DNA from: Acidimicrobiia bacterium
Lineage (GTDB): Bacteria; Actinomycetota; Acidimicrobiia; Spongiisociales; UBA5794
Direction: 5' to 3'
Assembly: GCA_030065575.1 (NCBI GenBank)
Contig: JASJDZ010000009.1
Span: 1 to 64,000 of the forward strand
DNA: 64,000 bases
Under the pieces are notes generated by a model. The model was not told where the DNA came from. It saw only the letters and a program-made list of their open reading frames with translations, and did no database searches. Made by a program: the position numbers and the translations under genes. Shown here piece by piece: positions 22,832 through 23,808 of this stretch (its first letter is position 1; each line of letters opens with the position of its first letter).

Positions 22832-22866
22832 CGCGCCCGAGGAGGCGCCGCCGGGGGCCGCAGGCA

Positions 22867-22914
22867 AAAGGAAACCCCGAGGGAGTTTCTGCCGAAGCTT
22901 CCACCCTCTCGGGG
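22867..22914 (-). terminator. Terminator of candidate RNA 2
   Basis: Minus strand CCCCGAGAGGGTGGAAGCTTCGGCAGAAACTCCCTCGGGGTTTCCTTTT; near-identical to the RNA 1 terminator. Confidence 0.78.
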
Positions 22915-23404
22915 ATCCTTGCTTCTGGTCGAGCACCTCCCCGAGGGGCGGGCTCTTCCAGCCGCTGTTGCAGATGGCGTTAGCCAACTGCTGGCTCGTC
23001 CGGATGCCCGGGGTGTTATCCCCGCACGACCGGTCGTGCCTTCTCCTTGGCGAGTGCCGAGGCCCCCGCCTTGGGGAAACCCGTGGGACCATTGTCTCCG
23101 ATGGCTTGCCGCTCGAACCCCGGCCCAAAGGGCCTTGATCCGGCAGCCTTCTCGGTGTCCGGCCCCGACCGTTTCCAGCCGATACCTTCTGCCCGAGGAA
23201 ACCCTCAGATCCGCCGATCTCACCGGCGGACGGGACCGAAGCCCCATCCGTCTCCGCTGCGTGCCGGCCACCTGTCCGGAGCGGGCCGTGACCCGCGCCT
23301 TCCCGGCGGTCTGCCTCGCTTGGAGACTCCGGTTGGTCCGAAGACCACCCGGTCCGATCGGCCCGGAGGCCGCTCGGTTGACCGGCCCGAGGGCCAGTCG
23401 ATGC

Positions 23405-23439
23405 GGAGGGCGAACCCTCCGGCGGAGGGCGAACCCTCC
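23405..23439 (-). repeat. Tandem identical UUCG hairpins inside candidate RNA 2
   Basis: ggagggcgaaccctcc twice (23405-23420, 23424-23439), period 19; minus strand GGAGGG-UUCG-CCCUCC. Confidence 0.85.
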
Positions 23440-23466
23440 CCGGCCGAGCCCGGAGGCTCTTCCGGT

Positions 23467-23499
23467 GTCGAGACCGAAATCCCAGTCGAGACCGAAATC
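23467..23499 (-). repeat. 15-nt direct repeat inside candidate RNA 2
   Basis: gtcgagaccgaaatc at 23467-23481 and 23485-23499 (period 18), each forming a minus-strand UUCG hairpin. Confidence 0.85.
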
Positions 23500-23731
23500 T
23501 CGGCTGAAGCTCAGCCTCGGGCGCAGAACCGTCGTCCTGCCGGTCAGAAGAGCCGAAACTCCCCAGACCGTCTGCGTCCGTTGGGGCCGAAACCCCTCGG
23601 GTCGCTGCGGGGTCGTGATCCCGCTGCGGAATGTATCCATCCCGATGATCCCGGTGCCGGTGCGGTCCAGTTTCCCGGGTCCGCCCCTTCCGAGACCGGC
23701 TCCTCCATGGTTGGAGCCCTCGAGGAAGGAA

Positions 23732-23808
23732 AACGTAAGGCACACCGCTAGTGGCCGTCAAGCCAGAAACGTCTTTCGTTTTCGCGTGCTTTGGTTTTGT
23801 TTCGCGGT
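23732..23808 (-). promoter_or_regulatory. Promoter/upstream element of candidate RNA 2
   Basis: Minus strand CCGCGAAACAAAACCAAAGCACGCGAAAACGAAAGACGTTTCTGGC-TTGACG(23756-23761)-N18-TACGTT(23732-23737). Confidence 0.72.

What the first reader, a model, noticed from the sequence alone, without database searches (positions are those of the whole stretch)
22866..23808. About 860-nt candidate structured RNA (RNA 2) in a 1.07-kb intergenic region
Seen directly: between the lipoprotein gene (+, ends 22831) and the RecB-like nuclease gene (+, starts 23899) there is a very GC-rich, stop-poor block. Overlapping long ORFs run through four frames on both strands, which suggests non-coding stop depletion rather than a gene. 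On the minus strand it begins with TTGACG-N18-TACGTT (23732-23761) and ends in a terminator hairpin plus U-rich tail (22867-22914). The interior is almost continuously hairpins. Established: UUCG/UNCG loops are a hallmark of structured RNAs. Inference: a large ornate ncRNA, possibly undescribed.
Basis: partly seen in the sequence, partly recalled or inferred. Interest (0 to 1): 0.88.

Follow-up and report, generated by a model that had tools for sequence, protein, structure and literature searches.

The report
Twin hairpin-array RNAs beside RecB-like gene
The block encodes a roughly 860-nucleotide, heavily folded RNA that is not made into protein; it belongs to an undescribed family kept at one chromosomal spot across a whole order of uncultured Acidimicrobiia, and its promoter carries the same switch-like sequence found at DNA-replication genes.

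Summary
On the minus strand, 23761-22866 is an independent non-coding RNA gene (RNA2): TTGACG-N18-TACGTT promoter, about 860 nt of tetraloop-capped hairpins, then an intrinsic terminator. No Rfam match. Fold z-score -8.75 (plus strand -5.1). In six species 65 of 211 pairs show compensatory changes; reading frames are not kept.

It is one of a pair. RNA1 (about 270 nt, 17600-17316, minus) has the same promoter type and 3' hairpin. A covariance model of that 52-nt hairpin finds 119 of 138 genomes of the order, usually twice, and exactly twice here. The first RNA is divergent from the RecB-like gene in 57 of 58 loci; an RNA precedes a bPH_2 gene in 43 of 44. The ends are constant; the interior is hypervariable (96-862 nt).

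100 of 113 copies carry CGCGAAA-N13/14-CGCGAAA, with TTG exactly 18 nt downstream in 94. The same box and geometry precede class II ribonucleotide reductase; the box also lies upstream of dnaA, even in a distant family. So the RNAs share an operator with replication genes.

Best guess: stable trans-acting RNAs made during replication or growth, with a protein recognising the constant 3' hairpin. The gene family is well supported; the function is inferred. No expression evidence.

The parts
22866..23725 (-). RNA2, predicted non-coding transcript of about 860 nt (start inferred from the -10 element)
   Evidence: fold z -8.75; 65/211 pairs with compensatory change in 6 species; frames not kept
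23732..23761 (-). RNA2 core promoter TTGACG-N18-TACGTT
   Evidence: same geometry in homologues
23780..23806 (-). double direct-repeat box CGCGAAA-N13-CGCGAAA, 18 nt upstream of the -35
   Evidence: reversed-pattern control close to zero
22865..22916 (-). constant 3' element of RNA2: terminator hairpin CCCCGAGAGGG...CUCCCUCGGGG with GA/GA internal loop, UUCG cap and U tract
   Evidence: model R1, 72.1 bits, E 1.2e-17; 38-row alignment
17316..17600 (-). RNA1, companion non-coding RNA of about 270 nt
17599..17628 (-). RNA1 core promoter TTGACC-N18-TACCTT
17647..17673 (-). double CGCGAAA box of RNA1
17316..17367 (-). constant 3' element of RNA1
   Evidence: model R1, 71.0 bits
23403..23439 (-). 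tandemly duplicated hairpin unit (18 nt, two identical copies) inside RNA2, an example of hairpin gain
23467..23499 (-). second tandemly duplicated unit (15 nt, two identical copies) inside RNA2
23899..24717 (+). PD-(D/E)XK (RecB/Cas4-like) nuclease gene, divergent neighbour conserved with the RNA across the order
   Evidence: Pfam PF12705; divergent in 57/58 loci
16577..17209 (-). bPH_2-SHOCT gene downstream of RNA1, with its own -10 (TATGAT, 17221-17216) six nt before the ATG
   Evidence: Pfam; 43/44 loci

Best explanation
RNA2 is a dedicated non-coding RNA gene on the minus strand and one of a pair (RNA1, RNA2) of independently transcribed, very stable hairpin-array RNAs. SHOWN by comparison: both have the same activator-type promoter (two CGCGAAA boxes about two helical turns apart, then -35 and -10) and the same 3' terminator hairpin, while the interior changes length and sequence by gaining and losing tetraloop-capped hairpins. 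SHOWN by comparison: the box, with the same spacing to the -35, is also upstream of class II ribonucleotide reductase, and the box is upstream of dnaA. INFERRED: one unidentified transcription factor switches the RNAs on with replication or growth. INFERRED: the RNAs act in trans as stable RNAs that a protein recognises through the constant 3' hairpin (constant CCCCGAGAGGG arm, GA/GA internal loop, UUCG cap), the bulky interior giving stability, repeated generic hairpin sites, or scaffolding. This would work in the manner of protein-sequestering RNAs such as 6S, Ms1 or CsrB, without being a member of those families.
For: Fold z -8.75. RNA2 alignment: 65/211 pairs with compensatory change against 26.9 in shuffles, 0/500 reach it, slid controls at most 19. 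RNA1: 14/93 against 7.0, 0/500. Transcript strand favoured: consensus energy -256.9 against -180.9 for the complement, 135 G-U cells against 61; median z -5.3 against -2.8 and 84/96 RNAs better on that strand; CUUCGG 277 against 26, GNRA hairpin motifs 747 against 201. R1 finds 119/138 genomes of the order, two copies in the own genome. Box upstream of 100/113 terminators, TTG exactly 18 nt after it in 94, TAnnnT -10 in 85. Box upstream of nrdJ (10/13 with the same geometry) and of dnaA. Synteny 57/58 and 43/44.
Against: No transcription data exist for these uncultured genomes. No protein partner, target or transcription factor is identified. At dnaA the box does not stand at the activating distance (0 of 24 sites), so its role there may differ. 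One genus of the order (g49) has many boxes but no R1 hit. Interior sequences share little between genera, so a common function for all members is assumed. The 38 sequences of the R1 alignment were chosen by a sequence pattern, which inflates the apparent invariance of the hairpin.
Confidence: 0.55

Rival explanations
1. Cis-acting leader: RNA1 (and by extension RNA2) is a long attenuator or riboswitch that controls the bPH_2-SHOCT gene downstream by read-through of the terminator.
For: RNA1 lies codirectionally just upstream of the bPH_2 gene in 43 of 44 loci, often within 50 nt; the terminator hairpin is strictly conserved.
Against: The bPH_2 gene has its own -10-like element (TAnnnT) a few nt before its ATG in most of the 22 loci inspected, the look of a leaderless promoter. 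RNA2 here ends against the convergent lipoprotein gene. In L034 the two RNAs converge, so neither leads into a gene. Several families have the RNAs without the bPH_2 gene nearby.
Confidence: 0.12
2. Precursor of several small RNAs cut by RNase III from the hairpin array, each acting by base pairing.
For: Arrays of separate stable hairpins. Trans-acting small RNAs need not depend on Hfq (general knowledge).
Against: Interior hairpins are not conserved in sequence between genera and many loops are closed tetraloops, poor for base pairing; Hfq is absent in 26/26 genomes.
Confidence: 0.1
3. A DNA-level element (cruciform-forming or replication-related site) whose hairpins are selected in DNA, not RNA.
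For: Box shared with dnaA; a DnaA-box sequence at 23840 found at the same place in 4 genomes of the genus; neighbouring RecB-like nuclease.
Against: Selection is strand-asymmetric: UUCG and GNRA loops and G-U pairs favour one strand. Each copy has an oriented promoter and terminator.
Confidence: 0.06
4. Csr/Rsm-type sponge: a hairpin array that titrates CsrA through GGA motifs.
For: Hairpin-array architecture; purine-rich GGAAGG segments between hairpins; CsrA is encoded in the window's genome.
Against: CsrA is absent from 19 of 26 genomes searched, among them many that carry the RNAs. The enriched hairpin loops are UUCG and GNRA, not GGA.
Confidence: 0.04
5. A phage-borne ornate RNA of the GOLLD/ROOL type domesticated in the chromosome.
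For: Comparable size and hairpin density; [quoted passage not shown]
Against: No Rfam match to GOLLD, ROOL or OLE; no tRNA in the window; no match in phage or plasmid records; fixed chromosomal synteny over the order.
Confidence: 0.03

Closest known systems
OLE, GOLLD and ROOL large ornate bacterial RNAs
   Same: Hundreds of nucleotides, hairpin-dense, non-coding; GOLLD also has a constant 3' part and a variable 5' part (PMC12286853)
   Different: No covariance-model match; found as twins at one locus; hypervariable interior; chromosomal locus fixed next to a RecB-like gene rather than in phages or tRNA islands
6S RNA and actinobacterial Ms1 RNA (from memory)
   Same: Growth-linked stable RNA proposed here to bind a protein
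   Different: No Rfam 6S match; no single long hairpin with a promoter-like bubble seen; two copies with the same promoter type and very variable size
CsrB/RsmZ sponge RNAs (from memory)
   Same: Array of many hairpins in one transcript, with hairpin number varying between species
   Different: UUCG/GNRA loops enriched instead of GGA loops; CsrA missing in most carriers
Intrinsic terminators of bacteria
   Same: The 3' element is a G+C-rich stem followed by a U tract
   Different: It is near-constant in sequence, including the internal loop, across 119 genomes and nearly confined to this locus

Membership tests
Any Rfam 15 family | Covariance-model score above the gathering threshold | tested here: not met
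   window; 39 homologous or related loci; only two tRNAs found
OLE/GOLLD/ROOL | Family secondary-structure core, as modelled in Rfam | tested here: not met
   no hit even with E-value threshold 5
GOLLD/ROOL | Phage, prophage or tRNA-island context | tested here: not met
   no tRNA in window; no match in phage or plasmid collections; fixed synteny
Csr/Rsm sponge | CsrA encoded in carrier genomes | tested here: not met
   absent from 19 of 26 genomes, though present in the window's own genome
Csr/Rsm sponge | GGA in hairpin loops | tested here: inconclusive
   loop types enriched are CUUCGG and GNRA; GGA-loop frequency was not counted
6S / Ms1 | Binding to RNA polymerase | not testable with these tools
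   needs pull-down; no 6S Rfam match
Riboswitch / attenuator leader | Transcript reads into a downstream gene that lacks its own promoter | tested here: not met
   bPH_2 has its own -10-like element next to the ATG; convergent RNAs in L034; RNA2 ends against a convergent gene
Independent structured non-coding RNA gene | Own promoter and terminator, covariation, no conserved reading frame | tested here: met
Independent structured non-coding RNA gene | Detected transcript | not testable with these tools
   no expression data

The most novel reading that the evidence does not exclude
The twin RNAs are the RNA arm of a bacterial replication regulon: one transcription factor, reading paired CGCGAAA boxes, controls dnaA, ribonucleotide reductase and two structured RNAs, and the RNAs tune replication initiation or nucleotide supply by binding a replication-linked protein through their constant 3' hairpin.
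Probability: 0.25. Interest if true: 0.9.

Novelty: new variant of a known kind. Interest (0 to 1): 0.74.

Why it matters
If right, an entire order of environmental Actinomycetota carries an undescribed pair of large structured RNAs, held at one locus across the order, and wired to the same operator sequence as dnaA and ribonucleotide reductase. That gives a testable link between a non-coding RNA and control of DNA replication, and an unusual evolutionary pattern: constant ends, strong selection for folding, and free turnover of the hairpins between them.

Tried and rejected
Protein-coding reading: long open frames are not kept in relatives, Pfam silent, protein search finds only the window itself and one hypothetical. 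Known RNA families: none. Phage or plasmid origin: no match. Leader of the bPH_2 gene: rejected as general role. Csr sponge: rejected as general role. Hfq-dependent small RNA: Hfq absent in 26 of 26 genomes. DnaA boxes next to RNA2 as a general feature: only within the genus. Literature searches for this RNA, this order or the CGCGAAA motif gave nothing relevant. RNA-RNA target prediction was not attempted: at about 68% G+C it would return mostly noise.

Full report
What was checked. On the minus strand TTGACG (23761-23756), an 18-nt spacer and TACGTT (23737-23732) are followed by about 860 nt and then a G+C-rich hairpin (22913-22876) with a U-rich tail. The block reaches 71% G+C and four long overlapping ORFs cross it on both strands. 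Its folding energy on the minus strand is -493.4 kcal/mol, z -8.75 against dinucleotide shuffles; the plus strand gives z -5.07. Nothing in Rfam matches.

A second copy and a family. BLASTN in the own genome found a 46-nt piece of the 3' end again at 17323-17368. There, a second RNA (RNA1, about 270 nt, minus strand) has its own promoter TTGACC-N18-TACCTT and the same terminator. Relatives have the pair too. A covariance model of the 52-nt 3' hairpin (R1) hits 119 of 138 genomes of the order, usually twice. In the own genome it hits twice above 70 bits; the other hits are the same hairpins read backwards or weak. An exact-pattern scan of the GTDB genome collection returned 68 contigs, nearly all titled Acidimicrobiia, Actinomycetota or Actinobacteria MAGs. 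The few titled Acidobacteria include contigs of the same length as contigs that the genome search places in this order (for example 25,583 and 9,348 bases), so they are probably misnamed. From memory of GTDB names the order is probably UBA5794; this was not tested.

It is RNA, it is non-coding, and the strand is the minus strand. In an alignment of RNA2 from six species of the genus (A1) the consensus fold has 211 pairs, 65 of them with compensatory changes; 0 of 500 shuffles reach this (mean 26.9) and sliding the partner by 1-3 columns gives at most 19. RNA1 (A2, seven species) has 14 of 93 against 7.0. The structures were derived from the same alignments, so the slid control favours them, and the shuffle control ignores relatedness. 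The transcript strand folds better as a consensus (-256.9 against -180.9) and holds 135 G-U cells against 61. Across 96 homologous RNAs the median z is -5.3 on the transcript strand and -2.8 on the other; CUUCGG occurs 277 times against 26, GNRA hairpin motifs 747 against 201. The long frames of the window are interrupted in relatives and most gaps are not multiples of three. No Pfam family matches the ORFs. The only protein hits are the window itself and one 200-aa hypothetical protein, possibly a gene call over a related RNA.

Anatomy. Constant parts: (1) a double direct repeat CGCGAAA-N13/14-CGCGAAA, exact in 100 of 113 copies and approximate in 6 more; (2) TTG exactly 18 nt after it in 94 of the 100 and a TAnnnT -10 in 85; (3) the 3' hairpin CCCCGAGAGGG-Y-nGA-nGC-UUCG-GCn-GAR-R-CUYYCUCGGGG followed by U's. 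Variable part: the RNAs run from 96 to 862 nt, filled with tetraloop hairpins. Two tandem duplications inside RNA2 (23403-23439, 23467-23499) and the gaps of A1 show how hairpins are gained and lost. Within a family the 5' ends are alike, between families mostly not.

Locus. The PD-(D/E)XK (RecB/Cas4-like) gene (Pfam) is divergent from an RNA in 57 of 58 loci, and a bPH_2-SHOCT gene follows an RNA on the same strand in 43 of 44. In the window's genus a block of genes (LPG_synthase_TM, PAP2, a PAP2-kinase fusion, a lipoprotein) sits between the two RNAs; elsewhere they are usually closer together. The bPH_2 gene carries its own -10-like element just before the ATG, and in L034 the two RNAs converge, so the RNAs are not simply its leader.

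A shared operator with replication genes. The double box occurs a few times in nearly every genome of the order (58 of 60 relatives), while the reversed control pattern is almost never found. Of 36 other sites inspected, 12 lie upstream of dnaA-dnaN and 13 upstream of a class II ribonucleotide reductase; one lies by FtsK and the rest are mixed (Pfam on representatives). The own genome has the dnaA site (G000:C78:31516-31542). At the reductase the box stands exactly as at the RNAs (TTG at 18 nt in 10 of 13); at dnaA it does not (0 of 24). A distant family of about 1-Mb, A+T-rich genomes (f12) mostly has exactly one box per genome, upstream of a dnaA-dnaN-like pair in the 12 loci read (Pfam for one). 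So the box is older than the order, and the RNAs appear to have joined it.

Mechanism. What is shown is a gene family with an activator-type promoter, a constant 3' hairpin and selection for folding. What is inferred is that a common factor makes the RNAs when cells replicate or grow, and that they act in trans as stable RNAs bound by a protein at the constant hairpin. I give this reading 0.55 overall; the existence of the RNA gene alone I would put above 0.95. The rivals (leader of bPH_2, small-RNA precursor, DNA element, Csr sponge, domesticated phage RNA) each meet contrary evidence above; the small-RNA precursor and the leader remain possible in part.

Relation to known kinds. In size and hairpin density it resembles OLE, GOLLD and ROOL (PMC12286853), but it matches none of their models and sits in a fixed chromosomal locus. 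CsrA is missing in 19 of 26 genomes and Hfq in all 26. No paper found describes it, with the caveat that only open-licence papers were searched.

Limits. The genomes are mostly incomplete MAGs; no expression data; no partner; the transcription factor is unknown; the R1 alignment was seeded by a sequence pattern; structural tests used RNAalifold structures on six or seven sequences.

Noticed in passing
L117-L119, L121-L155; window boxes 23780-23806 and 17647-17673: A double box CGCGAAA-N13-CGCGAAA marks a tiny regulon: the two RNAs, dnaA-dnaN and class II ribonucleotide reductase. The transcription factor is unknown.
   Followed up: partly
L157-L166, L175, L176 (family f12, about 1-Mb A+T-rich genomes): Exactly one such box in most genomes of this family, upstream of dnaA in the loci read: a deeply conserved dnaA-upstream element.
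   Followed up: partly
L218-L234 (genus g49, family f2): This genus lacks the R1 terminator but has 7-10 double boxes per genome, mostly in front of a dispersed, similar non-coding element (GGGCCC-CCCCCGCC-ACCACC near the start). Possibly another RNA or a mobile element.
   Followed up: no
L137:3775-3824, L138:3825-3876, L139:3475-3528 (family f23): A possible distant relative: about 240 nt of GCAA-loop hairpins ending in AACCCCGAGGGGCUGG...ACUCGGGGUUU, 17 of 83 consensus pairs with double changes in three sequences, no CGCGAAA box, different locus.
   Followed up: partly
window 23840-23848; L022:7035, L023:2350, L026:1882: A DnaA-box sequence (TTATCCACA type) lies between the RNA2 promoter and the RecB-like gene in 4 genomes of the genus, not in the loci outside it.
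   Followed up: partly
window 17539-22831: A genus-specific insertion of membrane-lipid-type genes (LPG_synthase_TM, PAP2, PAP2-kinase fusion, lipoprotein) separates the two RNAs.
   Followed up: partly
L126:3124-5361: One box in genome G017 lies just upstream of an FtsK/SpoIIIE gene, a possible further DNA-segregation target.
   Followed up: no
L034:2027-2078 and 2371-2422: In genome G020 the two RNAs are convergent instead of tandem.
   Followed up: yes
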